Shown here: one piece after another, positions 35,604-52,794 of the stretch | Layout: each line of letters begins with the position of its first letter | Numbering within the stretch: the stretch's first letter is position 1 | NCBI GenBank assembly: GCA_002213445.1 | Contig: NJIE01000033.1 | Span: forward strand, 1 to 64,000 | Reading direction: 5' to 3' | Length of the DNA: 64,000 bases | Origin: Xenophilus sp. AP218F | GTDB lineage: Bacteria; Pseudomonadota; Gammaproteobacteria; Burkholderiales; Chromobacteriaceae | Translations under genes and position numbers: made by a program | The notes under the pieces: model-generated | What the model saw: only the letters and a program-made list of their open reading frames with translations | The model's database searches: none | What the model was told of the DNA's origin: nothing

Positions 35604-36046
35604 CTATTCTCCTGCGAACCGCGGCGTCGGCCCGGCCTCGGCCGCATGGTTCTTGGTCGGATCGGCGCGCCCAATCTGACGGCCGGCTCGGGATTATCCA
35701 CCCTAATCAGATTGTACGACGCCAAACCGATTCAGACACCCCGCCCTGAAGCAGGTTGCCGCCTAGGCCAAAGTGACTAGGGGCGGTGGGCGTGTGCCGC
35801 GCAACCACGCCGTGGCGTATTTTGATAGCGACGGTTCGCTTGATTCATTTAACACAAATACTTACACATAAAATTACAAAATATATAAAGTAATCACAAT
35901 TCTCGCTCCCATACTGGCCGCTCCAATCGTATCCGGATTGGATGCCGAGCCAGCCCCTTGCAGGCCGGGCTGGCCGTCACGGGCTATGCGCTCGTTCCGG
36001 CCGCGTAGCCATCGCGTTCGCCCCAACCACAGCAAGGGAGGAAGAA
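35604..36046. other. Divergent intergenic region, moaA and S53 protease
   Basis: No gene is seen in these 443 bases. An AT-rich tract at about 35838-35910 probably holds the protease promoter (rightward). TTGATTCATTTAAC near 35839 has one FNR-type half-site but no matching second half. AAGGGAGGAAG just before 36047 is the protease ribosome-binding site. Confidence 0.45.
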
Positions 36047-37975
36047 ATGGCGAATCGATTCAAGAGGAAAGCAGCGACGGCGGCCATCGCCGCCACGGTC
36101 TCCGCCACCGCGCTGGCCGCGTCGCCAGCGCTGGACCTGGGCAAGATAGACCAGGCGGCGCCGGCCCCAACCCTGACCGTCACCGTCGCGCTGCCCTTGC
36201 GCGACCGCAACGCGGCCACCCGCTACCTGACCGAGCTCCACACCAGCGGCAGCCCCCATTATCACAAGTTCCTCACCCCCGCCGAGTTTCGCGGCCGCTT
36301 TGGCCCGGACGAAGCGGCCGTGGCCGCAATCAGCGGCCGCCTGACGGCCGCGGGGCTGGTTGTTGCCCGCCGCGGCAGCGTCCTGCTTCAGGTTAGCGGA
36401 CCGGCGGCCAGCGTGCAGCGCGCATTCGGCGCGGAATTGCACCTGTTCCAGGCCCGCGACAGTCAGAGCGGCGGCGTCAGCCGCTTCATGGCCCCGGCCA
36501 AAACCAGTCAGCCCGCGGTAGACCTCAGCGGCGTGCAGGCGGTGATCGGCCTGGACAGCCGGCCGCGCTTCCGGCCGCATGTCAGCAAACAACCCTCCCA
36601 GCTGGCCCGGGCCCTGGTCAGGGCCAGCGGCGCGAGCGGCGGCAACGCCCCCGGCAAGTGGACGGTAACCGACCTTGCCCGCTACTACAATGTCGCGCCG
36701 CTATACGACAAGGGCATCAACGGCAAGGGCGCCACCATCGGCATCGTCACCCTGGCCGCCTTCACCCCCGCCGACGCCTTCCGGTACTGGAACCAGCTGG
36801 GTCTGAAAACCAATCCCGACCGCCTGACCGTGGTCAACGTCGACGGCGGCCCCGGCGCGCCCAGCGACGACAGCCAATCCGTGGAAACCACGCTGGACGT
36901 GGAGCAGTCCGGCGGCCTGGCCCCCGGCGCCAAGATGATCGTCTACCAGGCCCCCAACACCACCCAGGGCTTTGTCGACGCCTTCGCCCAGGCCATCGAG
37001 AACAACGCGGCCGATGCCGTTTCGACCAGTTGGGGCTCCTGGGAATGGGGTGACCTGCAAACCGCCGCCAACGACCCGGTCAGCGGCGGCAGCGCCAACG
37101 TGCTGCAGACCTATCACGACCTGTTCCTGCAGGCCGCGATGCAAGGCCAGAGCCTGTTCGCCGCCGCCGGCGACGCAGGCGCTTACGACGTGAACGCTCA
37201 GACCGAAGATCCCAAGGACGGCTACCACCCGCCCAAGTTCAGCAAGGTGTTGTCGGTGGACAGCCCGGCCAGCCAGCAATTCATCACCGCTGCCGGCGGC
37301 ACCACCCTCGCCGCCTCGCTGACCTTCAAGATCAAGGGCGAGCCGTACATGGTCACCGTGCCCGCCGAGCGCGCCTGGGGCGAGGACTACCTGACCGGCC
37401 TGTGCAAGAAACTGGGGCTGGACCCCGTGTCTTGCAACTGGCCTAACGGCGGCGGCGGCGGCGTCAGCGGCTTCATCCCGCGTCCGTTCTACCAGTCGTG
37501 GCTGCCCGGCATGCAGAACACCCAGCCTGGCCAGCATCTGGTGGACAACAGCCAGACCCCGCCGCAAGTGATTGCCGCCCTGCCGGCGAGCTACCCTGGC
37601 CGCAACGTGCCCGACATCTCGATGAACGCCGATCCGCAAACCGGCTACGTGGTGTACTACACCTCGGACAAGACGGGCTTCTCGGTGCTCGACGGCGAGG
37701 GCGGCACCAGCTTCGTCGCGCCGCAGCTGGCCGGCATCGCCGCGCTGCTGAACCAGTCGCAAGGCAGCCGCCTCGGCTTGTTGAATTTCGCGCTCTACGG
37801 CATGGCCAGCACCGGCTACGCCTACACCGGCTTTGGAGGCATCGGCGCGCCGCTGCGCGACATCCGGGTAGGCAACAACTGGTTCTACGCCAGCCGCGCA
37901 GGCTACGACCAGGCCACCGGCCTTGGCGTGCCCGATGTGGCCAATCTGGCCGCCGCCCTCAAGCGCTGGTTCTAG
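36047..37975 (+). CDS. Secreted S53 (sedolisin/kumamolisin) serine-carboxyl protease
   Basis: The 642-residue product has a signal peptide (to about residue 25), a pro-kumamolisin activation domain (about 40-180: TSGSPHYHKFLTPAEFRGRFGP, VQRAFGAELH) and an S53 catalytic domain. Catalytic residues are Glu280 and Asp284 in SVETTLDVEQ and Ser555 in GGTSFVAP. The calcium-site region is near the C-terminus (ATGLGVPDV). The family usually acts at acid pH after self-cleavage of the propeptide. Confidence 0.92.
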   Translation: MANRFKRKAATAAIAATVSATALAASPALDLGKIDQAAPAPTLTVTVALPLRDRNAATRYLTELHTSGSPHYHKFLTPAEFRGRFGPDEAAVAAISGRLTAAGLVVARRGSVLLQVSGPAASVQRAFGAELHLFQARDSQSGGVSRFMAPAKTSQPAVDLSGVQAVIGLDSRPRFRPHVSKQPSQLARALVRASGASGGNAPGKWTVTDLARYYNVAPLYDKGINGKGATIGIVTLAAFTPADAFRYWNQLGLKTNPDRLTVVNVDGGPGAPSDDSQSVETTLDVEQSGGLAPGAKMIVYQAPNTTQGFVDAFAQAIENNAADAVSTSWGSWEWGDLQTAANDPVSGGSANVLQTYHDLFLQAAMQGQSLFAAAGDAGAYDVNAQTEDPKDGYHPPKFSKVLSVDSPASQQFITAAGGTTLAASLTFKIKGEPYMVTVPAERAWGEDYLTGLCKKLGLDPVSCNWPNGGGGGVSGFIPRPFYQSWLPGMQNTQPGQHLVDNSQTPPQVIAALPASYPGRNVPDISMNADPQTGYVVYYTSDKTGFSVLDGEGGTSFVAPQLAGIAALLNQSQGSRLGLLNFALYGMASTGYAYTGFGGIGAPLRDIRVGNNWFYASRAGYDQATGLGVPDVANLAAALKRWF

Positions 37976-38041: not shown

Positions 38042-39826
38042 TCATCGCCGCTCGAGATCGGGGGTCATGTCCACGCCGAACCTTTCCGCTTTGTCTGGAA
38101 AATGAAACTCGCCCACCACGCGCCCGGCCGCCCGTCCGCCAGGGTTCGAAACCGTCGGCACGAACAACTCGATGACGCTGCCCGCGGCCAGATCCGCATA
38201 GTCCAGCCCTGCTTCAGGCCTCTTCCACGGGCCTCCCCGCACCCGAATCAGCGCCTCGCGCCGCCAAGCCGGCGGCAACACTACCAGCAGCCTCACGACG
38301 GAAGGATCCGCCAGCCTTCCGGACAACAGGTAATGCCTCAACGGGTAAACGCTGCCCGCCACGCCGCCTGCCGTCATCGGTTGCGGCCGCGCCGCTGAAG
38401 GAAACAGGGATAACGACGCCTGCAAGCTGGCGTGGGCGCGGTAAGTTGTCACCCGGCCATCGTGCATCAGCGCGCTGACGCTCAACTCCGGAACGGGTCG
38501 GCCATGCGCCAGATCATCGACGAAAGCCGGAGAAAGGAGCGGATTCACGAACCCGGAACCGCGAAAATCCAACTGTCGCGTCTTGCCGCGGCCATCGGTC
38601 ACGCCGTCGAAGTAAGCGCGCGGCAGGAAGGAAACGATTCGGTCCACCTCCGCGATGCAAGGCCCTCCATCCCGAAACAAGCGCCACACCGGCCGCCCCG
38701 CGCCCCCAAGCCAGCGTCCTTCGGCACGCCCCGGGGAGGAGACGGTAGCGACATAGCGCTGCCGGGTCGCGTGGTCATTCAACAGCATCAGGCCAAAATC
38801 GTCGGTTCTCGCCAGCCGCGCGCCGGAAGGTCCAGCCTCCGGGGACACGTGGAACCGGTCGCCCAGCTCCTTTCTCGACGCCGAATAGAAAACCAGATCA
38901 AACTGCCTGCCCGCATGGCGATAGTTTTGGGACGCCCTGCGCCTTGCGTCGTCGTCGACGAATACTTCCACGCTGCGGGCGGCCATCAGCTCTTTCAGCG
39001 GCGCCTCCGCTCCTTGTCGACGCCACTCGCCTCCCGCCCGGAACCAGCCGCGGACGCCCACGCTTCTGGGCCGCACCGTAAAACGCGCGTCATCCAGGCT
39101 GACCGCGGCGCGCCTGGCCGCCACCGCTCTCACCAGACAGATGCGGCCATCCTGCTGATTGAGCCGCGCCGGGCGACACGCTGGCGCGGCAGGCGAAGAC
39201 AACCGGACCTCGGCGGCCTTGGACACCCTGGCGCGCCGGGTCTGCTCGCCGCCGGGCGCCGAGCGGACAATGGCAAAATCCACCGGATGCCCGATGGGCA
39301 GGCGCCGCAGTTTTTCCGGAAAATCATCCGCAAACACCGGGTTGGTCTTATCGGCATCCGCCAGATCGCCGAACCTGGCCACGCCCTGGCAGCTGTATTT
39401 GCCTGCCAGGCCCTGGAACCAGGCCGACGGGCTGACCTTCAAGATAGCGCCGGCGGGCGCGTCGCCGCCCTGACGCCAGACGAAGGGGCTGCTTACCTTG
39501 CCGCCGGAAAAACCGAAGATGGACTCGCCGGACATGGCCCCGTCCTTCCGCGGCAGGGTTGCCAGCGTCGTCACATACGCGGAACCCGAGGCGCGGTCAT
39601 CAACCAGCAACAGGTCGATCCGGCTGGCCAAATCCGGCGCGCGCGCGGCGAAAACGGGCGGCGCGCACGCCAGCCAAACCGACAGCGCCCACCCCACGGC
39701 AAACGCAGGCGCGGCAAGGCCGCGCCGAGCCAGACGGGAAAACCCGCGCATCGCTCCCCATCCCGGCTTGCGGCCGCCCTGGCCGCAGAGCCATGCGTTT
39801 TGGCCCGCCCGCCCGCGCTTCCTCAT
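38042..39826 (-). CDS. Second EcpD-like protein with two tip-adhesin units
   Basis: The 594-residue product starts at an ATG overlapping the ecpE stop (ATGA); an ATG at 39751 gives a neater signal peptide (MRGFSRLARRG...) and is the alternative. Unit 1 (about 69-325) has LLLVDDRASGSAYVTTL, TNPVF, a cysteine pair C217-x12-C230 and the Trp/EVFV/FYSAS tail. Unit 2 (about 342-560) has LMLLNDHATRQRYVAT and FVNPLLS but no cysteine pair. Both match the units of the large EcpD. It lacks the C-terminal pilin-like domain, so it may be an alternative tip protein or a surface adhesin. Confidence 0.72.
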   Translation of the reverse strand: MRKRGRAGQNAWLCGQGGRKPGWGAMRGFSRLARRGLAAPAFAVGWALSVWLACAPPVFAARAPDLASRIDLLLVDDRASGSAYVTTLATLPRKDGAMSGESIFGFSGGKVSSPFVWRQGGDAPAGAILKVSPSAWFQGLAGKYSCQGVARFGDLADADKTNPVFADDFPEKLRRLPIGHPVDFAIVRSAPGGEQTRRARVSKAAEVRLSSPAAPACRPARLNQQDGRICLVRAVAARRAAVSLDDARFTVRPRSVGVRGWFRAGGEWRRQGAEAPLKELMAARSVEVFVDDDARRRASQNYRHAGRQFDLVFYSASRKELGDRFHVSPEAGPSGARLARTDDFGLMLLNDHATRQRYVATVSSPGRAEGRWLGGAGRPVWRLFRDGGPCIAEVDRIVSFLPRAYFDGVTDGRGKTRQLDFRGSGFVNPLLSPAFVDDLAHGRPVPELSVSALMHDGRVTTYRAHASLQASLSLFPSAARPQPMTAGGVAGSVYPLRHYLLSGRLADPSVVRLLVVLPPAWRREALIRVRGGPWKRPEAGLDYADLAAGSVIELFVPTVSNPGGRAAGRVVGEFHFPDKAERFGVDMTPDLERR

Positions 39827-40461
39827 GGCCTGGTTGCCGGCTTGTCCATGTCCGCGCAACGATCCAGCAGCGTCGTCACCTTGTCGATGAAGCCCAGGCT
39901 GACCTGGCTGCCCGATCCCGGCGTCGGCAGCCGAAAAGATTGCCCTGGCCCCAGCAGGCGAGTGGGACCCTCGGTTTTGCCACAGTCCTCGTCCATCATC
40001 ACCATCACGAAAGCATTGCTCTCGTTGCGCAGTTCCGCGCCGTCGAAATGATATTTCAGCGCGGGTTTGGCCGGGCGGACGAACAGCCTGCTGGTCAGTT
40101 CCAGCGCATAGGAAATTTGCTGACGGGGCGACTGCTCCCCTACCCGGATGACAAAGTAGCGCTCGTTTTCCGGTTTCGGGCCGGCATAGCTCACGGCCAC
40201 TCCGCGCCGCTGACCGGGGCCGAGCGTAAAGCGGGCCGGCTCCAGCTTCACCGCCGGACTGGAAGGCGCAATGACTCGCACCCGCCCATCCGGAAATGTG
40301 GTTTCGTCCACCGACAGAACATAGGTTTGCGGCTGCGCCCCATCATTTTTCACCATCAGCTGGACTTGCTGCCGCTGCGGCGGCAAATCCAGCAGGGGCG
40401 TCACCGCCGTGGCTTGCGCCAACGGCGCCAGCAGCAAGCCGGCCGCCAGATAATTCCACAT
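39823..40461 (-). CDS. ecpE: EcpE-like second periplasmic chaperone
   Basis: The 212-residue protein has a signal peptide (MWNYLAAGLLLAPLAQA) and two Ig-like domains of pilus chaperone form (LPPQRQQVQLMVKNDGAQPQTYVLSVDE, ARFTLGPGQRRGVAVSYAG, ERYFVIRVGE). In the E. coli ecp operon EcpE follows the tip gene, as here. A strong AAGGAGGTGG precedes the ATG. Likely dedicated to folding the large tip protein. Confidence 0.8.
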   Translation of the reverse strand: MWNYLAAGLLLAPLAQATAVTPLLDLPPQRQQVQLMVKNDGAQPQTYVLSVDETTFPDGRVRVIAPSSPAVKLEPARFTLGPGQRRGVAVSYAGPKPENERYFVIRVGEQSPRQQISYALELTSRLFVRPAKPALKYHFDGAELRNESNAFVMVMMDEDCGKTEGPTRLLGPGQSFRLPTPGSGSQVSLGFIDKVTTLLDRCADMDKPATRP

Positions 40462-40507: not shown

Positions 40508-43500
40508 TCACTTCAGTTGCAGATCCAGCGTCAGCTTGCCATTCATCTTGGCATCCCCAGACCACGGCTGGCCGCTAGCGTATTCTGAAACCGGATCGCT
40601 CATCACTACCGTTGCCTGGATATCCGTCGTATACGCATTTGGCCCATCAGGCGTCCAGCCTGCCGGATCGCTCAAGGACAACTCGCTCAGGCTGGCGCAG
40701 TTGATCTCCTGAGGAGTTCCAACGCCAAGCTCCTGCAACTTGAACGGCACGGCAACCTTTCTGCTGTTCGACACGGTTTTAAAGGCGCAATAGGTGTGGC
40801 TGTCTACCACATGGCTGTCGATATCGCTGACCTTGACCTTGACCTGCGCCGCGCGCACCAAACGGCTAGCCAGGTACTGCCCGCTCTCCTTCTTGGCTAC
40901 AGGCGCGTAATTGGAAAGCTTCACCCCGTACTTCAACGCCACGTCCGGCTTGCCCTGGCCAAACTCGCCACTCTGCCTCCCCGCTTCATAGCTAAAGCTG
41001 ATTTCCGGTTGCAGCACCGGGGCGATGTTCACCCTTCCGGATATCGAACTCGCATCCGTGGGCGAATCGGCCTTGGCGCGGATATCAAAGTATTTCAGCT
41101 CCACATCCCCGATATCCTTCGTCAGCAGTTTGAAAGAGAAATGATCCGTAGAAGCCACTCTCACAACTCCACCTGCGACGATATCTACCGTGCCTGTCGC
41201 GCCTTGCAAATCGTAAGCATTCGGGATGGTCAAATTGCCCGCTCCTGCCGTGCCCGCATACAACTTGAGATAAACATCCTGCCCGCCGCTCAGGGCTGGC
41301 TTGTCCAGATAGACATCCAGCTTCACCTCGGCCCCGGCGGTAACCGGGTCGGGAGACGCGGTTATCTGTCTCACCTGCGCAGGCGCATTGGGAAGAATGG
41401 CCACACGCGCCTCCTTCATGGCTGGCGGATTGATCATCCTGCCGGCATTCGCCAGCATCAAGAACTCCTCCCGGCTCGTGTCGGCATCTTGTGCCGTCTG
41501 CACCGTAAAGGTGAAGGAATCGAACCCCTCCTTGACCGTTACGTAACTGCCAAGGTCGGTAAGATCCGCAATGCTGCCGCTGGCGCTGCTGGAAAGATCG
41601 TGCAATGCGCGGTCGGTCAAGTCATAGATGGTGGCGCTATCAGGCTTGAAATTCACCCACACATCCTGCCCCCCCGCCAGCGCGGCTTTATCCAGTTGCA
41701 CCTTGAACTGGGCCTTGTTGCCAGCCAGCACTTCGCCGCCAACCGGATCGATAACCGTAATCGAGGTTACAACCGGCGGCACGACCTTGGGCAGAATTTC
41801 CACCTTTGCGGCAGGCGCGCCCAGATCATCACTCGTCCCCTCCTTGGCGCGGATATCAAATGTTTCGACGATCTGCTCATCATCCGCTTTGGTCGCGATA
41901 TCGAAGGTAAAGCTATCTTCATTTTCCAGCATGGCAACCACGCCACCAGTCGCCAGATTGCTTACCGGATTGCTGGCTCCACTCAGACTCAACATTCCCG
42001 GGTTGTCCAGGTCGTTGATATCCGCGCTGCCCTTGCCGTCAAATTTCACGTATATCGATTGATTCAGCAATGCAGGACGATCCAGCTGAACGGTGACCGT
42101 CGTCGTTTCCCCTGCCGTGACAGTGCCAGGCTGCGCCGTTACCGACAAAACCTTTGCAGGAATTTGCGGGAAAGGAGGCGCGCCTTCTACATCAGTGTAA
42201 AACCCGCCTCTTTCAAACTCTTGGGCAGCATCAGGCCCTTCAAACAACCAGCTCCGCCCCGGGGTATCCGTGGGCGAAACCTGCGGTATGATTTGCGGAT
42301 ATTTCAACTTGCTTGAATCCCCCGTACTACCTATACGCTTTACCCTTAGTTCAAAGGGTGGCATATACCAAACCACTGTTTCCCATGGCTTCCTTAAAAA
42401 AACTCCACCATTTGCCGAGAGAAAATTGCTTTTAAAGTAAAAAGTGAAAACAAAGTCCGCGTTTCCAGAAGGAATCGTTCCATCTCCGCTTGCAGGAAAC
42501 GGCTTGGTTTGCACAATAGCATAGGGATCGTTTTGACAACTATAAGTACGGCTATCTTTACTGTCCCAGAACTCAAGTCCATGAGGCCCACCGGCAAATG
42601 TATGGATCACTTTCTCCTGCCCGACGCCAAGCCCAGTCAAATCCAGCACTTCCGGAGGCTTATAATAGCCTTGATTCTCGGCAATATGTGGCGCATAGTT
42701 AGTGCTTCCCGAGCAGCCAAATCTCAATTCCCGAGAGCTCTCGCCTCGCCCCATCCTTATGGAGTAAACCGCAGCATCGCCTCCCAGGCCAGAATGGAAA
42801 ACCAGGCGATAATCATCAGGCCCATAAGCTTTTTTTCCCGCTTGGCTATCTGGCACAAAAATATCAACTTCCCCGCCGGTAGCCAGCGCCTCTAGACGAA
42901 TGGTTTCTTTCGCTTTGTGCCATTCCCCGTTGTGCCCCACCCTCAGTTTTTGCCCCTCGGGAATCCAAGCGCTGACTCTCCCCACGCTGCTGGTTTTCAG
43001 AACATTGCCGCTCACTATGCCAATGCCGCACACCATGCCATTTTCATCCCCTACGCGCGCGGCTTTACACTCTCCGTCTGCTCTTGACTGAAACGACAAA
43101 ACGCCTGCATTTTGCAAAGCCACTTTCTTTATCAATCTCTCGCCTTGGCGCAAAGTCAGATCCAGGCGCAACTCAGCGCCCAATCTCCCCAGGCCACCCT
43201 TCAGTGCGTCAAAACCAGTGGAAGCCAGCTCCAGGCCTTGCCGAGCGGGAGCAGGGTCCTTCGTTTGGGGAAACCAATTTGCGGGTTCGATCTTGTTGAT
43301 GCTTTTCACTTGCAAACCAGGCTTCAGCCACAGTCTGGCCGGCTCCATCCTCGCGCCTGAAGAGCGGCTTCCTTCCAGAAACACATCGCTTGCCGGATTC
43401 AAGGTAGTGACATACTCGGTACCCGCGCTTTTATCTTCGATAAAAATCAGGTCCAGCTTCTGTCGGGTCTCTGCCGCTGGGCTCAGCCGGGTGCTGAAAG

Positions 43501-45232
43501 CCAGGCTGAATCGATCGCCCACCCGCATCGGCGAATAGAACTCCCCCTGCACGGCATACACCTGCGCTTTGGCCTGCTCATCCTGCGGCACGAACAGCTC
43601 CAGCGCCTGGCCGCGGCCAAACTCGGCCAGCTCTACCGGCTCGTTCAGCCTGCGCCAGGTCTGCCCCACCTTGTAACGGGCCTTTTGCTGCAAGAGGTAA
43701 GGCAATTTGGCGCTCAGGCGGAAACGCAACCCGCTGCCCGCCATCGGCTTGCCTGCCACCCGGCGCAACACGCACACCTGGCCAGCCGCGCCGTCCACTT
43801 GTTCCGCGCGACACTGGCCGCCCGCCATCAAGCGCAATTGTCCGGCCTTGGCCACATGCGCGCGGTATTGCACCTTGTCGCCATTGCTGCGCGTGCCTTC
43901 CATGCTCAACTGCTGTTGCTGGCCCAGCGGCATGGCGGCCAAGGCGGCGAAGCCCTGTTCGCTGAATACCGGGTTGATGAAACCGCCATCCTTGCCCGCG
44001 CCAAGGCGGCCATCCGCGTTGGCCAGTCCATTGAAAAAGCCTTCCGGCCGCAGCTTGTCCACCTGCTGAACCGGGTGATAGTCCGGCCGGCTTTGGCGAT
44101 TCACGTACCAGATAGGCTGGTAACCGCCGCGGCCGCGCAATTCGCCATACAGCGATTGCCCTTGGGCGTTGGCTTGCGTGGTGACGTACTGGCGGCCGCT
44201 GGGTTGGTCGTCTATCAATTGCAGGTCGAAACGCGACAGCGCGCGCTGCACTTCGGGCCGCAACACGCCCCCCAGCCTCAAAGCGAAACGGTCGCCCCGA
44301 ATCTGACGGCTGGCCGAATAAAATTTGGCTTCCAGAAGCGCATCCAGGGGTTGCGGCGCGCCAGCCATCTTGTTTTCAGGCGCGGCGAAAAAGACTTCAA
44401 TCGTCTTGGCCCCGGCGAATTCCGCCACGCTGACGTCGCTGCCCATCGGCTTCCAGTCTCGCCCCACGCGAAATCGCCCGTGCTGCACCGCCCCTTTGCC
44501 GCGGACGCTGAAACGCACGTCGCCGGCGCTGATGGCCTGATGCTGACCGCTGACCCGCCGCAGAACGCAGAGCTTGCCCGGCACGCCATCCAGCGTCTCG
44601 TTGCGGCAAGCGCGGCCGCCGGCCGCTTCCAGAATCAACTGCCCGCGCTTGAACACCGTGGCGTGGAATTCGCGCTCGCCCGCCTTAAGGGTTTCATGCA
44701 TCACCAGTTTCTGCTGCCCGCCCATCGGCATGCGCGCAAGCTCTTGCAAGGCGCGATCGCTGAAAACCGGGTTGACGGCTCGATCATCGTCTGCCGGCAC
44801 GCCCAGCACCGCGATCGAATTGCCCGCCTCCGCCGCTACGCCGCGAAACGCCTCAGCCGGTTTGAGTTCGTCCACCCGGACAACCTTGCCATCGGCCTTG
44901 TGCGTGTACCACGCCACCGGGCGGCCCGCGCGCGCGCCGCTGCCGCCATAAATGGCTTGCGGAGGCGAGCCGGCCAGCGCCGCGCCCGCGCTATCCAGCG
45001 TGGTAACGTATTGGCTCTGGCTAACCCTGTCCTCTACCAGCAACACGCCCTGGGTGGACTGGATCTTCTGCTTCACCGGAACGGGAAACGGACGCAAACC
45101 ATCCGAAGGCTTGAATGGTTTGACATGAGGCGGCTGCAATGGCCGCAACTGGCCAGGCACGGGCTCCGCCGAGCCGACGCTGCCGACCGCCATCAATAAC
45201 AAGGCAGGAATGGAGATTTTCTGGTATTTCAT
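40508..45232 (-). CDS. ecpD: Giant EcpD-type pilus tip protein with three adhesin units
   Basis: The 1574-residue secreted product is far longer than E. coli EcpD (about 547). After the signal peptide come three homologous units (about 60-320, 334-580, 592-825), each with an ...[ED]D..S....YVTT start and a C-x12-C pair (209/222, 474/487, 722/735). Next are a unique region (about 830-1020) and three Ig/Calx-beta-like repeats (about 1025-1410, e.g. VTAGETTTVTVQLDRPAL). The C-terminal pilin-like domain has SHTYCAF...INCASLS and alternating strands to LTLDLQLK, matching the end of EcpD. GGGAG precedes the ATG at 45232. Confidence 0.82.
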   Translation of the reverse strand: MKYQKISIPALLLMAVGSVGSAEPVPGQLRPLQPPHVKPFKPSDGLRPFPVPVKQKIQSTQGVLLVEDRVSQSQYVTTLDSAGAALAGSPPQAIYGGSGARAGRPVAWYTHKADGKVVRVDELKPAEAFRGVAAEAGNSIAVLGVPADDDRAVNPVFSDRALQELARMPMGGQQKLVMHETLKAGEREFHATVFKRGQLILEAAGGRACRNETLDGVPGKLCVLRRVSGQHQAISAGDVRFSVRGKGAVQHGRFRVGRDWKPMGSDVSVAEFAGAKTIEVFFAAPENKMAGAPQPLDALLEAKFYSASRQIRGDRFALRLGGVLRPEVQRALSRFDLQLIDDQPSGRQYVTTQANAQGQSLYGELRGRGGYQPIWYVNRQSRPDYHPVQQVDKLRPEGFFNGLANADGRLGAGKDGGFINPVFSEQGFAALAAMPLGQQQQLSMEGTRSNGDKVQYRAHVAKAGQLRLMAGGQCRAEQVDGAAGQVCVLRRVAGKPMAGSGLRFRLSAKLPYLLQQKARYKVGQTWRRLNEPVELAEFGRGQALELFVPQDEQAKAQVYAVQGEFYSPMRVGDRFSLAFSTRLSPAAETRQKLDLIFIEDKSAGTEYVTTLNPASDVFLEGSRSSGARMEPARLWLKPGLQVKSINKIEPANWFPQTKDPAPARQGLELASTGFDALKGGLGRLGAELRLDLTLRQGERLIKKVALQNAGVLSFQSRADGECKAARVGDENGMVCGIGIVSGNVLKTSSVGRVSAWIPEGQKLRVGHNGEWHKAKETIRLEALATGGEVDIFVPDSQAGKKAYGPDDYRLVFHSGLGGDAAVYSIRMGRGESSRELRFGCSGSTNYAPHIAENQGYYKPPEVLDLTGLGVGQEKVIHTFAGGPHGLEFWDSKDSRTYSCQNDPYAIVQTKPFPASGDGTIPSGNADFVFTFYFKSNFLSANGGVFLRKPWETVVWYMPPFELRVKRIGSTGDSSKLKYPQIIPQVSPTDTPGRSWLFEGPDAAQEFERGGFYTDVEGAPPFPQIPAKVLSVTAQPGTVTAGETTTVTVQLDRPALLNQSIYVKFDGKGSADINDLDNPGMLSLSGASNPVSNLATGGVVAMLENEDSFTFDIATKADDEQIVETFDIRAKEGTSDDLGAPAAKVEILPKVVPPVVTSITVIDPVGGEVLAGNKAQFKVQLDKAALAGGQDVWVNFKPDSATIYDLTDRALHDLSSSASGSIADLTDLGSYVTVKEGFDSFTFTVQTAQDADTSREEFLMLANAGRMINPPAMKEARVAILPNAPAQVRQITASPDPVTAGAEVKLDVYLDKPALSGGQDVYLKLYAGTAGAGNLTIPNAYDLQGATGTVDIVAGGVVRVASTDHFSFKLLTKDIGDVELKYFDIRAKADSPTDASSISGRVNIAPVLQPEISFSYEAGRQSGEFGQGKPDVALKYGVKLSNYAPVAKKESGQYLASRLVRAAQVKVKVSDIDSHVVDSHTYCAFKTVSNSRKVAVPFKLQELGVGTPQEINCASLSELSLSDPAGWTPDGPNAYTTDIQATVVMSDPVSEYASGQPWSGDAKMNGKLTLDLQLK

Positions 45233-45330: not shown

Positions 45331-47853
45331 TTATAGTTCTTTCGGTTTAACAAGCAACTTGCCGTCGCCATTGGTGCGCCATACCACGTCGCCGAGCCAG
45401 GCGGTGCCGCTTCTGTCCGGCAGCTCCAGCACCATTTCAAACGCGCCGGCGTCGGTGGACTGCACTTTCATTTCCGGATAACGGCTATCCACGTCGATGG
45501 AGAAATTGCCCTTGTCATCGCTGACGGTTTCGCCGATGTGGTTCTTGATCCGGGCGCCCTTGAGCGGCTCGCCGGCAGCGTTCTTGAGGCGGCCGAAGAC
45601 CGTGACCATCCGCTTGATGCCGGGCTTGAGTTCGATCACGTTGCCCGGGTACAGGGTGAAACGCTTGGTGATGTGCTCGATCTGGTACGCGCTGCCGGCC
45701 TCGTCGTGCGCCAGCACCTGCACCGTGTAATCCTTGTATGCCGGCAGCGCGATGAAATTGCGCCCGCTGCCCAAGGGGTAGCTGCGGCCGTCTATCCTGG
45801 CCTCCAGCTCGCTTGCGCCCACGTCCGGCAGCTCGATCACGAATCCCGACTGGCCGGTGTCGCCGCCGGCAGACACGCCGCCGGCAGCCAGCGACAGGCT
45901 CCCCGCGTGGGAAAGCGACAGGCTGCGGCTGTCCCGCGCGCCGCTCAGCGCCGCCACGCCGCTCCCGTAGCGGCCCGCGTAACTGCCCTCCAGGCCATAG
46001 CCGACGTCCACCTGGCTGCTGGATTCGGACTGCGCCAGCGAAACATTGGCATTCAGCCCGGTAAGCACGCCGCCATCGTCAAACGACCGGTTGGCGGACA
46101 AATCCAGTGTGCGCTGGCCGTTCTGCTGCGACAGGCCCACGCTGAAGTAGCTGTCCATAGACAGGCTGAAAGTCAGCATGCCGTAGTACTGACGCTCTGT
46201 CGCCACGCCGGCGCCGCTGTTCTGGTTGGCGCCCAGCTCCAGGGTCACCGCTCCGCCCGACTGCAAGTTGAAAGAGTGCGAATAGCTGGTCTGCAACGTC
46301 CGGCTGTCATCGTCCCTGTTCTTCTGGTACGAAACCGACAGCGTGCCGGCGTTTTCCAGCCACTGGCTCAAATTGAAGCTCAGGCCGGCCATATCGTAAT
46401 TGCTGCCCACATACTGCAACCTTTCGCCATCCCGCCCGCGCTCGCTGTTCAGCCACAGGTTGCCCAAGCCAGCCGGCAAATCCAGCGCCACGCCCATGGC
46501 GTGGCGGCGCGAGCCGTCATCGGCGAACAAGCCTTGCCAATCCAGCCGCAGAAAATCGCTCGCTTGCCATGAAAGATAGGTTTCCGCCACCGAGGTGCGA
46601 TCATTGCGATACAACGAAGCGTTCCACTCCGCGTCCCATAATTGCGAAGCGAGCGAGACGCCGAACAGCGGGGTGCGCCGCGTGCTGCGCTCCAACTCGG
46701 TCAGCGCGTAGCCGTTTTCGCTCTCGCTCACGCCCCCCCACAATTGCCAGCTCAAACCTGGTCCGTATTTGCCGCCGTTGTAGGGTTTGTTGACGCGATA
46801 ACTGCGCGTGGAGACCACCTGGCCTGCCACCACCACCTCCACCTCCACCTCGTAGACGCCGACAGGCAAGCGCGAGGTGTCCAGCTCATGGTTGCCCAGA
46901 GCCAGCCGCATCACCGCCAGCAGGCGGCCGTCGCGCTTGATGCGCACTTCGCCCGCGGAGGGCAGGTAGACCACGATGGGAATCAGCGACTGGCCGGCGT
47001 TGCGGGCCGCGGAGGACGCGGCGTTGCCAAAGGACGCGCCATAAAACCGTTCGCCATACGCCGTGGAGACGTTGCCCAGGCTCTGGATGCCCCAGCTGTC
47101 CAGCATGCCGGCCGCAAAGCGGTAGCCGCCGAAATCGCGCTCCACCATCACCTTCTGCATATCCAGGGCGTTGCCGGCGTTATCCGAACCCTGGGACACA
47201 TACCCTTCCACCTCCAGGTGATTCTCGCCAAGCGAAGTGATGGATTCGAAACTCAGCGTGCCGGACTGGCTGCTCTGTTCCTGATACTGGCTGGCGTAAC
47301 CGCTGAAACGGTAATTCAATACGCTGTTCAGGCCATCGGACGAGGCCGCGCCCAATTCCCTGGCTTCTTTTCGGCGCAGGCCCAGCGCGGAAGCGTCCAC
47401 CCGCAAGCTGGCGAGCATGGTGTCCTGGTTCAGCGAGAGGATCATGTGTTCGCCCAGACGCAGCTCGTGGCTGGCATCCAGCGCCTGGCCCTTGTGGCTT
47501 TCCAGCAGCGCCAGGCTCTCGGCGGACAGCACCACGTCGCTGTCGGGCAGCAAAACCAGGCCGCCGAATATGAATTCCCCGTTCTGATAGGAAATGTCGG
47601 CATTGGCGACCGGAAGCGGCTCGCCAACGTCGTCGGCATCTGCGTTCACCAGGCTGACCGGAGCGGAAAAGCCGGAAGAGAGGTATTGCAATGCTTCTTC
47701 GGAGGCTTGCAGCGTGCTTTTGCCGCGTTCAGCAGACGAGCTGCCCGGCATCGTAACGGCCGAGCCTGCCGTGTCGGCGCAAACCGGGCACAGCCACCCC
47801 AGCAGTGCCAGTGCGAGCGAAACCCTGCTCAAAGAAAAAGGCATGCGACTCAT
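45331..47853 (-). CDS. ecpC: EcpC-like outer-membrane usher
   Basis: The 840-residue protein, the same length as E. coli EcpC, has a signal peptide (to about residue 26), an N-terminal domain, a long beta-barrel of alternating strands, a plug-like region (IPIVVYLPSAGEVRIKRDGRLLAV) and C-terminal Ig-type domains (RMVTVFGRLKNAAGEPLKGARIKN). It belongs to the alternate (CS1/Ecp-type, TcfC-like) usher class. It starts 33 bases after the chaperone. Confidence 0.88.
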   Translation of the reverse strand: MSRMPFSLSRVSLALALLGWLCPVCADTAGSAVTMPGSSSAERGKSTLQASEEALQYLSSGFSAPVSLVNADADDVGEPLPVANADISYQNGEFIFGGLVLLPDSDVVLSAESLALLESHKGQALDASHELRLGEHMILSLNQDTMLASLRVDASALGLRRKEARELGAASSDGLNSVLNYRFSGYASQYQEQSSQSGTLSFESITSLGENHLEVEGYVSQGSDNAGNALDMQKVMVERDFGGYRFAAGMLDSWGIQSLGNVSTAYGERFYGASFGNAASSAARNAGQSLIPIVVYLPSAGEVRIKRDGRLLAVMRLALGNHELDTSRLPVGVYEVEVEVVVAGQVVSTRSYRVNKPYNGGKYGPGLSWQLWGGVSESENGYALTELERSTRRTPLFGVSLASQLWDAEWNASLYRNDRTSVAETYLSWQASDFLRLDWQGLFADDGSRRHAMGVALDLPAGLGNLWLNSERGRDGERLQYVGSNYDMAGLSFNLSQWLENAGTLSVSYQKNRDDDSRTLQTSYSHSFNLQSGGAVTLELGANQNSGAGVATERQYYGMLTFSLSMDSYFSVGLSQQNGQRTLDLSANRSFDDGGVLTGLNANVSLAQSESSSQVDVGYGLEGSYAGRYGSGVAALSGARDSRSLSLSHAGSLSLAAGGVSAGGDTGQSGFVIELPDVGASELEARIDGRSYPLGSGRNFIALPAYKDYTVQVLAHDEAGSAYQIEHITKRFTLYPGNVIELKPGIKRMVTVFGRLKNAAGEPLKGARIKNHIGETVSDDKGNFSIDVDSRYPEMKVQSTDAGAFEMVLELPDRSGTAWLGDVVWRTNGDGKLLVKPKEL

Positions 47854-47886: not shown

Positions 47887-48573
47887 TCAGTCAGAGACGA
47901 CCTCTCGACCAAACGGCAGGAAGGAGTTATTTCTCCAGGCACCCATGGACATATTGGAATCTGTTACATCCAGCTTCTCATGCACCGGCACATCTTTTCC
48001 CGGCATAACAGGCCGGTATATCTCGCAATTATTTTCCGGGCTGTTGGCGCACTTGCCGGAAGCGTAAAAGCGGAATGTGGAATTTCCGCTATTCAGCAAA
48101 CGCTTGCCATCCCAACGATAAGATCGGCTCTCTTGCCTTGGATTTACCACCAGCGCGGTCCTGATGCTCACCGTAGTAGCAACATTGCCTATTACCAAGT
48201 CATCGCTAGACGGCCCCACTCGGTCCAACCTGGAATCTCGCCACAAGATGGCATAATAGCGTTCCTTATCGTCAGCTGGGCCTTTATAAACAAACTTGTA
48301 TTTCCCCTTGCCGCCTGCCGGCAGCATGGAACGAACCGGAGTAAACAACAAATACCCTTCTTCTTCAGGAGAAACCTTGATCTCATTCATCGAATACGGC
48401 GAGTCAATCGGCACCACTTCCAAGGCCACAACATGCGCGGCAGTTCGATCTGGATTTTCGACTTCAATTGTTATCGACTCCTGATCCGACTCTAATAAAT
48501 GATAGTAACTACCTAAACTAACTGCATACGCTTTAGATGCAAAAAGAAAAATCAAGAAAAAATATTTACTCAT
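47887..48573 (-). CDS. ecpB: EcpB-like periplasmic chaperone
   Basis: The 228-residue product has a signal peptide (MSKYFFLIFLFASKAYA) and closely follows EcpB: ITIEVENPDRTAAHVVALEV, then YKGPADDKERYYAILWRD, VVNPRQ, LLNSGNSTFRFYASGKC and a second Cys (NNCEIYRPVMPGKDVPV). YKGPAD-KERYY is almost the E. coli sequence as I recall it. AT-richer than the usher gene. The start at 48573 begins the signal peptide; an ATG at 48603 adds ten residues with no merit. Confidence 0.88.
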   Translation of the reverse strand: MSKYFFLIFLFASKAYAVSLGSYYHLLESDQESITIEVENPDRTAAHVVALEVVPIDSPYSMNEIKVSPEEEGYLLFTPVRSMLPAGGKGKYKFVYKGPADDKERYYAILWRDSRLDRVGPSSDDLVIGNVATTVSIRTALVVNPRQESRSYRWDGKRLLNSGNSTFRFYASGKCANSPENNCEIYRPVMPGKDVPVHEKLDVTDSNMSMGAWRNNSFLPFGREVVSD

Positions 48574-48651
48574 AGCCTCACCAAAGCCCACCCAAAAATA
48601 CAATTGTTTTTTTTAAAAAATATTAAAAAAATGACCCAACCGTCCCCGCTT

Positions 48652-48694: not shown

Positions 48695-49291
48695 TTATTC
48701 AGTCCAGGTTGCGCGGATGTTAAAATCCATCTTGCCGGTGTAATTACCGGCCGGCAAAGATGCATAATCCGTAGCTCCGCCGGCAGTGCCAAAAGCAGTC
48801 TTAACAAACGGACTAATAGTGGTCACGCCGGAAGATTGAGCCTGGTCAGTCGTAACATCCAGAGCATCCAGGCCATCCAGAGTGCTCACATCCACCACTT
48901 GATAGCCAGAGCCTGCAAAAACCGTCGCGTTGCCGATATTAGCGCCCATATTGAAGCCCTTGCCCGGCTGGCCAAACTGAGTCACCTTGCCATTCGCCAT
49001 GGCAACCTCCAGCTTGAATGCAGTAAATGGATCACCCGCACTGGAGTTCGTCGGATTCTGGACATCGATCCGGATCGGGGTTTTCCCGCCATTCTGAACA
49101 TCAAACTGTTTCGTGCTTTGGTTGTACACAACCTGCACGCGCTCCAGAGCATTGGCAGAGATGCCAAAATCCTTAGGCGCTTTGACGCCATCCACCATTA
49201 CCGTCGCAGTGGTGTCCGCCACTTGATCAGCAGCAAATACCGCACCAGAAGCTGCCGCCAATACCGCAATTGCGATTACACTCTTTTTCAT
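48695..49291 (-). CDS. ecpA: EcpA-like major pilin
   Basis: The 198-residue protein has a signal peptide (MKKSVIAIAVLAAASGAVFAA) and an all-beta mature region with no Cys. The end ATDYASLPAGNYTGKMDFNIRATWTE resembles the E. coli EcpA end (TDYSTLP...W.G....DATWTS). CAGGAGTG precedes the ATG at 49291. It is the first gene of the pilus operon and is followed by an attenuator, as expected for the most abundant subunit. Confidence 0.86.
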   Translation of the reverse strand: MKKSVIAIAVLAAASGAVFAADQVADTTATVMVDGVKAPKDFGISANALERVQVVYNQSTKQFDVQNGGKTPIRIDVQNPTNSSAGDPFTAFKLEVAMANGKVTQFGQPGKGFNMGANIGNATVFAGSGYQVVDVSTLDGLDALDVTTDQAQSSGVTTISPFVKTAFGTAGGATDYASLPAGNYTGKMDFNIRATWTE

Positions 49292-49943: not shown

Positions 49944-52187
49944 CTAGCGGCTGTTTCTCATCTTGTCCACCACAGCCTCCACCTCCGTCAGCCAGCGGCC
50001 ATCCGCGTCGACATCATCCACCTGCTCCAATAGCGCGCTCAGTTCCTTGGATTGCAACATAGCCGCCACGCCCGACATCTTGTGGGCAAGAAAGCGGGAA
50101 GCGTCCCGATCTCCTCTCGCAACGGCGCTTTTCAGAACCGGCCAATCCCGACCCAGGCTATCTACCGCCAGCGCCATCCAGTCCGGCGCGGTTTCGACCA
50201 ACGGCGCGTTCCCCGCTGCCTTACCGCAAAACGTCAGCAAGGCCTCGGCGTCCAGCGGCTTGCCCACATAGCCGTCAAATCCGTACCGCTCCAGCGTTTC
50301 CGGGTTTTTCATTCGGGCGTCGCCCGAAATGGAAAGGATGACTGTTCTCTTCCGTTCCTTGTGTTCATCCAGCATGCGCATGCATTCGCAGACTTCGTTA
50401 CCGCTCATATCCGACAGCTGGTTGTCCAGCAATACCATATCCAGATCGTCGTTCTCGTCGTAGCCGCTGATCGCGCCCTCTCCCGTGCTCTGGCAAACGA
50501 CGACGGCGCCCAATGAAGCCAGCTGCGTCGAAAGGATCTGAGCCACAGCCTCATCATCCTCGACCAGCAATATCTTCATCCCGCGCAACGCTCCGGCGGA
50601 AAGCCTTTCGCGCTTCGCCGACTTGCTCACCTCGGCCTGGATGGAAATGAAAAATCGACTGCCTTTGCCAAGCTCGCTCTCGCACTCGCATACCCAGCCG
50701 TTTTCATTCGATAGCCTTTTCACGATAGACAAGCCCAGGCCATGCCCGTTTTCATTGTCTTCGTTCGTTTTCCAGTTTCTGGCGAAAATGCTCTTGAGAT
50801 CCTGCTCGCTTATGCCTGGCCCGGTATCTTCCACCGCCAGTTGAATGCCATCGCTTGCGATCAACCGCAACGATACCGTCACGCCTCCCGCGCTGGTGAA
50901 TTTGATCGCATTGGCCAATAGATTGAAGAGGATTTTTCTGAAAGAAAGTATCTCTATCCTGACCAGACAGCCGTTTTCCATCTCTGACTCGAAGCGGAGC
51001 GCTATGCCCTTGTTCTCTGCCGCCGCCTCGAATGCTTCCACGACATCGCTGACCAGCAGATTGATATCCACCTCTTTTTGGCGCTCGGAAGCTATCCGGT
51101 TATCGTCCAGCAGATCTGACATCAATTCAGCGATCGCTCTGGAAGACTTCTGCATGCTGTCTATGATTTTTCTTTCCCGATACCCTTTCACCGAAGAAGC
51201 AAGAATCTCTCCGCCGCCCATGATGACCTGCATGAGGTTCTTCACATCGTGCGCGGCGCCGGCCAGATTATCGTTTTTCTTCTTGCTCTCTCTGGCCAGG
51301 CTGAACAGCCGGTAAAATCCCTTCATCAGGAAAATGGAAATCAGGAAAATGCATAGCAAGACCAGCATCAGGCTTTCAAACTGCCTGGACAGGCCTGTAA
51401 AGGTGGAAAGCGAAACCATGCCCATCTCGCGCTTCCAGTCCAGAATCAGCTCTTTCTGTTCGGACACCCTCATCGAATGCGTTTTTTCGTTCAGCGTGTT
51501 GAATAGATCGGGATGATCATTTCTAACCGCGATGGCCAACTGCATCACCCACCCCGGCAAACCGCCTACCACCTCGATGTCCTCATCCGCCTCCGCCAGC
51601 AGGGGCCTCGCCACGCTATCCTGCATCAGCACCAGATCTGCCTGCTTTTCTCTGAGCATGCGCAAGGCATCCTCGGGGCTGGCGGTTTCGTGGAGCCGCA
51701 CATCCGGTCTTTCCAGACGCAGCCACGAAACAATGGGTTTCAGCATCAAATTCGCCGATGAGGGAATCGCCATGTCCTGAACATCGATCTGTCTGGAATT
51801 GAGAACTGTGCGATGCCCCCCTCTTCCGATCGCTACGACTTTGTCGGTGTAATACGCATAGGTCAGATTGTATTGGCTGGCCAAACCTTCCTCGTGAAGA
51901 AAGTCGGCATTGACGCCTATCATCACGTCTGGCGATTTGCGCCAGTCCTCCGCACCGCTGATGATTTCAAAACTGGCCGGCACACCCTTCATCAGGAAGT
52001 CGAAGAATATCCGGTTCAGATCCTTCTTTTCCGCGTAATTGTCAATCCAGACAAAAAGCGCCGGAGTTGATTTCTCCCCAGATTTGAAATTCGGGTTCTT
52101 CTCTACCCACACGGAGGATGGCCATAACAACGCCATCATCAAGAAGAAAAAAATCGCGAGCCGCCGCAAGCGTTTTCCCAGAATCAT
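49944..52187 (-). CDS. BvgS-like hybrid sensor kinase
   Basis: The 747-residue protein has an N-terminal membrane segment, a periplasmic SBP_bac_3 (Venus flytrap) domain (about 40-250), a second membrane segment (272-290), HisKA with His313 (AAHDVKN), ATPase domain (NLLANAIKF, DTGPGIS, GHGLGLSIVKRL), receiver with Asp588 (MVLLDNQ) and a C-terminal HPt with His702 (LAHKMSG). This is a full four-step phosphorelay. The start overlaps the response regulator stop (ATGA), so the two are partners. Confidence 0.92.
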   Translation of the reverse strand: MILGKRLRRLAIFFFLMMALLWPSSVWVEKNPNFKSGEKSTPALFVWIDNYAEKKDLNRIFFDFLMKGVPASFEIISGAEDWRKSPDVMIGVNADFLHEEGLASQYNLTYAYYTDKVVAIGRGGHRTVLNSRQIDVQDMAIPSSANLMLKPIVSWLRLERPDVRLHETASPEDALRMLREKQADLVLMQDSVARPLLAEADEDIEVVGGLPGWVMQLAIAVRNDHPDLFNTLNEKTHSMRVSEQKELILDWKREMGMVSLSTFTGLSRQFESLMLVLLCIFLISIFLMKGFYRLFSLARESKKKNDNLAGAAHDVKNLMQVIMGGGEILASSVKGYRERKIIDSMQKSSRAIAELMSDLLDDNRIASERQKEVDINLLVSDVVEAFEAAAENKGIALRFESEMENGCLVRIEILSFRKILFNLLANAIKFTSAGGVTVSLRLIASDGIQLAVEDTGPGISEQDLKSIFARNWKTNEDNENGHGLGLSIVKRLSNENGWVCECESELGKGSRFFISIQAEVSKSAKRERLSAGALRGMKILLVEDDEAVAQILSTQLASLGAVVVCQSTGEGAISGYDENDDLDMVLLDNQLSDMSGNEVCECMRMLDEHKERKRTVILSISGDARMKNPETLERYGFDGYVGKPLDAEALLTFCGKAAGNAPLVETAPDWMALAVDSLGRDWPVLKSAVARGDRDASRFLAHKMSGVAAMLQSKELSALLEQVDDVDADGRWLTEVEAVVDKMRNSR

Positions 52188-52777
52188 AAGATGCCGAAAA
52201 GGATGAACAATTCCCTGTCATTGGAGATGCCAAGCTTGCGATAAGCCGCGTTTTTTTGCAGACTGATCGTTTTCACGCTCCTGCTGAACTTGAGCGCGAT
52301 CTGCGTGACTGTCATTCCATCCAGGCAACAACGCACGACTTCCTTCTCGCGCGACGTCAGCGTCTCGAAAATGCTTTCCTCGGCCTCTGTTGCCTTGCTG
52401 CCCACCCTCGCCTTTCTCTCCGCCATCATTTCAATCAGCTTGTTCAGGTCGCCTCCCTTGGGAAAAAAATTATCCGCGCCTGCGCGGATGATTTCTTCCG
52501 TTGCACCCGGTATCTTGATCGAAGAAACCACGATCAAATACAATTGCGGATGTTCTTCTTTCACTCTCTTTATCAACCTGATCCCATCGTGCGCTCCCTG
52601 CTCCAGCATATAGTCCATGATCAGAATATCAGGACATCTGGCTTTCAGGGAATCCAGCAGACCTACCGCACTCGAAAACTCTCCCCATACTTCAAACCGG
52701 CCCGTTCCTTCAAGAATATACCTCAACCCCGCCCGGACTACTTCATGATCGTCTACAATACTGACGCTATTTTTCAT
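52184..52777 (-). CDS. LuxR-type response regulator, partner of the BvgS-like kinase
   Basis: The 197-residue protein starts MKNSVSIVDDHEVVRAG and has receiver Asp55 (ILIMDYML), SSIKIPG, and a C-terminal helix-turn-helix (LTSREKEVVRCCLDGMTVTQIALKFSRSVKTISLQKNAAYRKL). It is similar in plan to BvgA and CblR. AGAGGAATA precedes the ATG at 52777. It lies 17 bases after the methyltransferase. Likely regulator of the adjacent pilus operon. Confidence 0.9.
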   Translation of the reverse strand: MKNSVSIVDDHEVVRAGLRYILEGTGRFEVWGEFSSAVGLLDSLKARCPDILIMDYMLEQGAHDGIRLIKRVKEEHPQLYLIVVSSIKIPGATEEIIRAGADNFFPKGGDLNKLIEMMAERKARVGSKATEAEESIFETLTSREKEVVRCCLDGMTVTQIALKFSRSVKTISLQKNAAYRKLGISNDRELFILFGIL

Positions 52778-52794
52778 TATTCCTCTCACCCGCT

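What the first reader, a model, noticed from the sequence alone, without database searches (positions are those of the whole stretch)
40508..45232. Giant Ecp-type tip protein with three repeated adhesin units
E. coli EcpD has one adhesin unit; this protein has three, each with a YVTT motif and a C-x12-C pair, then three Ig-like repeats before the pilin-like end. It would form a long multivalent tip fibre. To my knowledge such an expanded EcpD outside enterobacteria is little described.
Basis: partly seen in the sequence, partly recalled or inferred. Interest (0 to 1): 0.7.

Follow-up and report, generated by a model that had tools for sequence, protein, structure and literature searches.

The report
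Three-headed giant pilus tip adhesin
A Chromobacterium species carries genes for an E. coli common-pilus-like hair whose predicted tip protein is almost three times the usual size and strings three copies of the binding head together, which suggests a stronger, multi-point grip; the pilus type is known, the tripled tip is new to us.

Summary
The gene is on the minus strand (1574 aa, 169 kDa). It sits in a complete ecpABCDE-type cluster. Profiles match the units to the EcpD adhesin domain (HHalign E 2.7e-6; best of 200 column shuffles scores half) and the C-terminus to EcpD's pilin domain (1.2e-7).

Four of 19 Chromobacterium genomes have such a tip, each with three units; the nine enterobacterial EcpDs examined have one adhesin domain. 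No unit was found in the other genomes sampled. One other Burkholderiales genome has two ECP-like tips with the pilin end but other heads.

Beyond the finding: all 14 Chromobacterium units are basic (pI 8.8-10.7), while 8 of 9 enterobacterial EcpD domains are acidic. The window also encodes a secreted-looking protein with two units and no pilin end.

Best reading: tip adhesin of an ECP-type (alternative chaperone-usher) pilus, with three heads fused in one chain. Multivalency and polyanion binding are inferred. No EcpD structure was found for comparison, and the stalk model failed. New variant of a known kind.

The parts
40511..45232 (-). giant EcpD-type tip adhesin, 1574 aa, 169 kDa precursor
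45062..45166 (-). N-terminal Pro-rich linker after the signal peptide (10 Pro in aa 23-55, no Trp)
44243..45061 (-). adhesin unit 1 (aa 58-330; YVTT 75, C209-C222)
43469..44242 (-). adhesin unit 2 (aa 331-588; YVTT 349, C474-C487)
42728..43468 (-). adhesin unit 3, most diverged (aa 589-835; YVTT 607, C722-C735)
42161..42727 (-). unassigned region aa 836-1024, low GC, Cys 840/899, no Pfam match
41783..42160 (-). stalk repeat 1 (acidic; Ig-like fold presumed)
41384..41782 (-). stalk repeat 2
41009..41383 (-). stalk repeat 3
40511..41008 (-). pilin-like C-terminal domain, homologous to the EcpD C-domain
   Evidence: E 1.2e-7
48698..49291 (-). EcpA-type major pilin
   Evidence: 31% to EcpA, E 2e-9; NF047910, far below cut-off; 3QS3/3QS2, E 0.02-0.03
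47890..48603 (-). EcpB-type chaperone
   Evidence: PF18649; E 7e-25; 5DFK, E 3e-24
45334..47853 (-). EcpC-type usher (CooC_C, TcfC, Usher)
   Evidence: (36% over 687 aa, E 8e-118)
39826..40461 (-). EcpE-type second chaperone
   Evidence: 23%, E 4e-13; PapD_N, below cut-off
38045..39751 (-). second protein with two EcpD-type units and a signal-like N-terminus, no pilin-like end (569 aa, pI 10.5)

Best explanation
The protein is the tip adhesin of an E. coli common pilus (ECP)-type, alternative chaperone-usher pilus in Chromobacterium. Its C-terminal pilin-like domain would be held by the EcpE-type chaperone, passed to the EcpC-type usher and completed by the donor strand of the next subunit. 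In front of it, an acidic repeat stalk carries three tandem EcpD-type adhesin domains. One tip therefore presents three basic, non-identical heads and probably binds multivalently, most likely to polyanionic surfaces. Shown here (by sequence): homology of the three units and of the C-terminus to EcpD, cluster identity, the three-unit design in four species, and the charge contrast. Inferred: location at the tip, donor-strand assembly, multivalent binding, ligand class.
For: Cluster order A-B-C-D-E as in E. coli, with A, B, C and E each matching its counterpart. Units match the EcpD N-domain: HHalign E 2.7e-6, score 50.1 against a best of 25.1 in 200 column shuffles; the unit HMM scores E. coli EcpD (11.4 bits) above 2000 of 2000 shuffles of it (best 6.4). 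C-terminus matches the EcpD pilin domain at 1.2e-7, and plain BLASTP of two relatives' tips already finds it (E 7e-8 and 9e-6). Four of 19 genus genomes have units, each tip with three. Predicted secondary structure of the three units agrees at 0.86, 0.70 and 0.71 of positions, against shifted maxima of 0.53, 0.61 and 0.58. Units pI 8.8-10.7 in 14 of 14, EcpD domains pI 4.9-5.8 in 8 of 9; stalk repeats pI 4.2-4.9. In E. coli the ECP tip is described as a polymerised array of ~60 kDa EcpD (PMC3601411, section 3.2 read) and EcpD as the largest tip subunit of all chaperone-usher pathways, with its own chaperone (PMC4654587, passages).
Against: Direct BLASTP between the window tip and E. coli EcpD finds nothing significant (best E 5.9), and phmmer gives 0.3 bits; the link rests on profiles. 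No fold-level comparison with EcpD was possible. The N-terminal model is moderate (mean pLDDT 59.9, pTM 0.37; much of the first half of unit 3 is below 35). Foldseek counted 35 PDB matches at E <= 0.001, but the 50 rows shown are mostly long tandem beta-domain proteins of many kinds with TM <= 0.14 by query length. The stalk model failed. The window pilin lacks the donor-strand Trp found in 9 of 9 enterobacterial EcpAs and 3 of 3 Chromobacterium relatives. I have no expression, binding or microscopy data.
Confidence: 0.85

Rival explanations
1. The triple-head protein, like E. coli EcpD, itself polymerises through an N-terminal donor strand, so the tip is an array of three-headed subunits rather than a single capping chain.
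For: E. coli EcpD's N-terminal strand (15 residues) is fused to EcpA in PDB 3QS3, which I read as its donor strand. The three relatives have a Trp just before unit 1 (RQEWRSQQD) that could be the same element.
Against: The window tip has no Trp there and a Pro-rich N-terminus (10 of 33 residues). Seven of nine enterobacterial EcpDs also lack that Trp, so the feature is not general.
Confidence: 0.3
2. The three heads bind different ligands, so expansion serves a broader range rather than a stronger grip.
For: Units within the window tip are only 19-38% identical, whereas U1 is 45-46% and U2 41-42% identical to the same position in relatives.
Against: All are basic and share the predicted layout. 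U2 and U3 of relatives are 43-46% alike.
Confidence: 0.35
3. The N-terminal units are not adhesins but a structural or spacer array, with binding elsewhere (for example the unassigned region).
For: No ligand of the units is known to me; aa 836-1024 is unassigned.
Against: The domain homologous to the units is the bulk of EcpD, reported to mediate binding of EPEC to extracellular matrix proteins (PMC9499635: title, start of abstract and passages). Region 836-1024 has no BLASTP match (E <= 1) in the three relatives' tips, unlike the units.
Confidence: 0.1

Closest known systems
EcpD, tip adhesin of the E. coli common pilus (ECP/Mat)
   Same: N-terminal adhesin domain with a C-x12-C pair, pilin-like C-domain with a Cys pair, same place in an A-B-C-D-E cluster, second chaperone gene next to it
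   Different: three adhesin domains not one, plus an unassigned region and three stalk repeats; 169 against ~60 kDa; basic not acidic heads; Pro-rich N-terminus
ECP-like clusters in another Burkholderiales genome (G315; loci L094, L095)
   Same: EcpA-, EcpB-, EcpC- and EcpE-type homologues and an EcpD-type pilin-like C-terminus (E 6e-17 and 1e-15)
   Different: tip ORFs of 525 and 627 aa; the N-terminal head matches neither EcpD nor these units in HMM searches at E 0.1
CS1/CFA-I/Cbl-type alternative (alpha) pili
   Same: CooC-type usher
   Different: regions around 13 CooC_C ushers over cut-off (one per genome, class sample, several on short contigs) show no EcpD-type unit

Membership tests
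ECP-type alternative chaperone-usher cluster | ecpABCDE gene order on one strand | tested here: met
ECP-type alternative chaperone-usher cluster | EcpC-like usher with CooC_C/TcfC domains | tested here: met
   (E 8e-118)
ECP-type alternative chaperone-usher cluster | EcpB-like and EcpE-like chaperones | tested here: met
ECP-type alternative chaperone-usher cluster | EcpA-like major pilin | tested here: met
   (31%, E 2e-9); the EcpA equivalog model is hit only far below its cut-off (24.9 against 200 bits)
ECP-type alternative chaperone-usher cluster | pilin donor strand with central Trp (a property of EcpA, not taken here as needed for filing) | tested here: inconclusive
   present in 3 of 3 relatives, absent in the window pilin
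ECP-type alternative chaperone-usher cluster | MatA/EcpR regulator upstream of ecpA | not tested
   a hybrid histidine kinase and a response-regulator-like gene lie upstream; MatA itself was not searched for
EcpD (canonical tip) | EcpD-type N-terminal adhesin domain | tested here: met
   (sequence profiles)
EcpD (canonical tip) | EcpD-type pilin-like C-domain | tested here: met
EcpD (canonical tip) | one adhesin domain, ~60 kDa | tested here: not met
   three domains, 169 kDa; so filed as an expanded homologue, not as EcpD
EcpD (canonical tip) | self-polymerises into a tip fibrilla | not testable with these tools
   donor-strand evidence mixed

The most novel reading that the evidence does not exclude
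Chromobacterium has written the non-covalent EcpD tip array of E. coli into one covalent chain: three polycationic heads on an acidic stalk, three in each of four species. The window strain adds a secreted pilin-less two-head partner (window 38045-39751) that works off the pilus, for example as a bridging or decoy adhesin on the same polyanionic surfaces.
Probability: 0.3. Interest if true: 0.65.

Novelty: new variant of a known kind. Interest (0 to 1): 0.5.

Why it matters
A 2015 structural paper calls EcpD, at ~60 kDa, the largest tip subunit of all chaperone-usher pathways (PMC4654587, passage). This predicted tip is almost three times that. It gives a natural tandem-head tip for testing how valency changes pilus adhesion and how a usher passes a very large multidomain subunit. 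It also shows the EcpD head domain as a movable, duplicable module: replaced in another Burkholderiales genome, tripled in Chromobacterium, free-standing in the second protein.

Tried and rejected
Direct BLASTP of tip against E. coli EcpD: best E 5.9. PDB by sequence: for the tip only chance-level hits (best E 0.1); none for EcpD or the unit profile at E 1. Three weak order-wide unit hits (G384, G331, G236) were rejected on reading: ORFs opposite or out of frame with better genes, and a GMC-oxidoreductase-like protein (labels from recall). A weak EcpD hit in G747 with a stop inside had no unit support and was dropped. Stalk/pilin-half model unusable and not searched. Foldseek on the unit model uninformative. 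Unit tree poorly resolved with long branches; only pairwise identities are used from that call. A proteome-wide background for the charge of the units could not be computed; the comparison is with EcpD domains and the rest of the same protein only.

Limits of the census: in the order-wide unit search at most 6 candidates per genome were scored in the rows shown, and only one other genus member is listed as drawn; in the order-wide usher search at most 2 candidates per genome were scored in the rows shown; of 23 class genomes with a CooC_C match only the 13 over cut-off were looked at, one region each, at least three on contigs under 8 kb. Of 29 plasmid-collection records with an EcpD match I fetched 8, chosen for diversity. 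Absence elsewhere is for the genomes sampled and at these settings.

Full report
What is there. The gene at 40508-45232 is on the minus strand: 1574 codons, ATG at 45232 (the + strand reading has 8 stops). Architecture in residues: signal peptide about 1-22 (read by eye); Pro-rich linker to 57 (10 Pro in aa 23-55); unit 1 58-330; unit 2 331-588; unit 3 589-835; unassigned region 836-1024; three repeats 1025-1408; pilin-like end 1409-1574. The three YVTT motifs and three C-x12-C pairs are as reported.

The cluster. On the same strand, in order, lie an EcpA-type pilin, EcpB-type chaperone, EcpC-type usher, this tip, an EcpE-type chaperone, and then a further gene. Against E. coli K-12 MG1655 the matches are A 31% E 2e-9, B 31% E 7e-25, C 36% E 8e-118, E 23% E 4e-13. 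Pfam adds CooC_C, TcfC and Usher for the usher and EcpB_C for the chaperone.

Link to EcpD. Plain BLASTP of the window tip fails (best E 5.9); that of two relatives' tips finds the EcpD C-domain at E 7e-8 and 9e-6. I built a profile of nine EcpDs: E. coli and eight from the plasmid collection (8 of 29 records with a match). They are 517-547 aa and align end to end as one head and one pilin domain, although 3 of 9 contain a second C-x12-C spacing. HHalign of the 14 Chromobacterium units against the EcpD N-domain gives probability 88.5, E 2.7e-6 and score 50.1 over 239 columns, colinear with the C-x12-C pair. The best of 200 column shuffles is 25.1, the reversed alignment 12.9, and the EcpD C-domain 12.6. 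In the other direction, the unit HMM scores E. coli EcpD at 11.4 bits, above 2000 of 2000 shuffles of it (best 6.4). The EcpD profile finds the C-terminus of the tip at 1.2e-7, and of the relatives at 7e-10 to 1e-7. So I take the units as EcpD heads and the end as the EcpD pilin domain.

Who has it. Units occur in 4 of 19 genus genomes and 4 of 61 family genomes (the same four). In the order sample 4 of 399 matched, of which I hold only the window's own genome to be real. The three other Chromobacterium tips are 1565-1569 aa with three units each. Unit 1 of the window is closest to unit 1 of the relatives (45-46%), and unit 2 to unit 2 (41-42% against 35-40%). Unit 3 of the window is diverged from all (19-25%), so the age of the third unit is unsettled. 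Outside the units, BLASTP between window and relatives finds only weak C-terminal similarity (G005 E 4e-4, G013 E 0.01, none for G018): heads and pilin end are kept, stalks differ. The tip has no match among 72,556 plasmid records.

Other chaperone-usher clusters. A CooC_C usher is found in 23 of 369 class genomes, 13 over cut-off. I fetched one region from each of the 13 (several on short contigs); for the window genome this was its second cluster, on another contig. No ORF matched the units or EcpD profiles better than E 0.2. An ECP-type usher profile found 5 of 399 order genomes at 1e-10 (at most 2 candidates scored per genome in the rows shown). One of them, G315, has two ECP-like clusters whose tip ORFs (525 and 627 aa) carry the EcpD pilin end (domain E 6e-17 and 1e-15) but a head that matches neither EcpD nor the units; the other three outside genomes have no match. 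The head thus looks like a replaceable module.

Charge. All 14 units are basic (pI 8.8-10.7, net charge +3 to +14); 8 of 9 enterobacterial EcpD N-domains are acidic (pI 4.9-5.8), one is 7.7. The stalk repeats are acidic (pI 4.2-4.9). This points to polyanionic ligands. It is an inference, and no proteome background was available.

Mechanism. In E. coli the ECP tip is described as a polymerised array of EcpD (PMC3601411, section 3.2 read; PMC9499635, passages), and EcpD's N-terminal strand of 15 residues is fused to EcpA in PDB 3QS3, which I read as a donor strand. The window tip has no comparable Trp-bearing strand. Its relatives have a single Trp before unit 1, and only 2 of 9 EcpDs have the Trp. 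So a single capping chain with three covalent heads is my preference, but a polymer of three-headed subunits is not excluded.

The second protein. Window 38045-39751 (569 aa from its ATG) follows the EcpE-type chaperone. It has a signal-like N-terminus (by eye), two units (leave-one-out 4e-47 and 4e-22), pI 10.5 and no pilin-like end (the EcpD profile gives only E 0.94); the next gene is convergent. Only the window genome among the four has it (5 unit matches against 3 each). Its second unit lacks the C-x12-C pair. Without a pilin domain it should not be able to join the fibre by donor-strand exchange, so a secreted or periplasmic role is likely (inference).

Literature. Searches for EcpD with tip adhesin, with donor strand and with Chromobacterium, for Chromobacterium with chaperone-usher fimbriae, for C. 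haemolyticum with pili or adhesins, for tandem or multivalent tip adhesins, and for ECP with Burkholderia showed me no description of a multi-head EcpD. I saw listings with abstract starts, except PMC9499635, PMC4654587 and PMC5909252 (passages) and PMC3601411 (passages and one section); some of the searches matched more papers than were listed (5,751 matched, 10 listed). The one paper naming both EcpD and Chromobacterium uses EcpD for a chaperone in Janthinobacterium. The library holds open-licence papers only.

Verdict. Observation confirmed, interpretation supported at the level of family and architecture. Function is inferred. New variant of a known kind, moderate interest.

Noticed in passing
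window 38045-39751 (-): Secreted-looking two-unit paralogue of the tip without any pilin domain, pI 10.5, found only in the window genome among four with the cluster.
   Followed up: partly
window 42161-42727 (-): Region of the tip with GC 48% and GC3 0.44 inside a gene whose first two units are 65-66% GC: the gene looks mosaic.
   Followed up: partly
window 48698-49291 (-): The window pilin lacks the donor-strand Trp kept in 9 of 9 enterobacterial EcpAs and in the three Chromobacterium relatives; the Trp before unit 1 of the relatives' tips is also absent in the window tip.
   Followed up: partly
window 49944-52789 (-); L070 13601-18999; L094 13847-17131; L096 145-4279: Hybrid sensor kinase (HATPase, receiver and Hpt over cut-off in the window) and a response-regulator-like gene lie beside alternative chaperone-usher clusters in several loci, as if regulating them (other loci read by eye).
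   Followed up: no
L070 (G000:C3:78000-97000): The window genome has a second CooC-type usher cluster of another subtype without EcpD-type units.
   Followed up: partly
L094 11522-13402 (+), L095 6939-8513 (-): Two ECP-like clusters in one Burkholderiales genome carry a different head (alike in the two by eye) on an EcpD-type pilin end.
   Followed up: partly
window 35942-37975 (+): Pro-kumamolisin/subtilase-type peptidase gene convergent with the pilus cluster.
   Followed up: no
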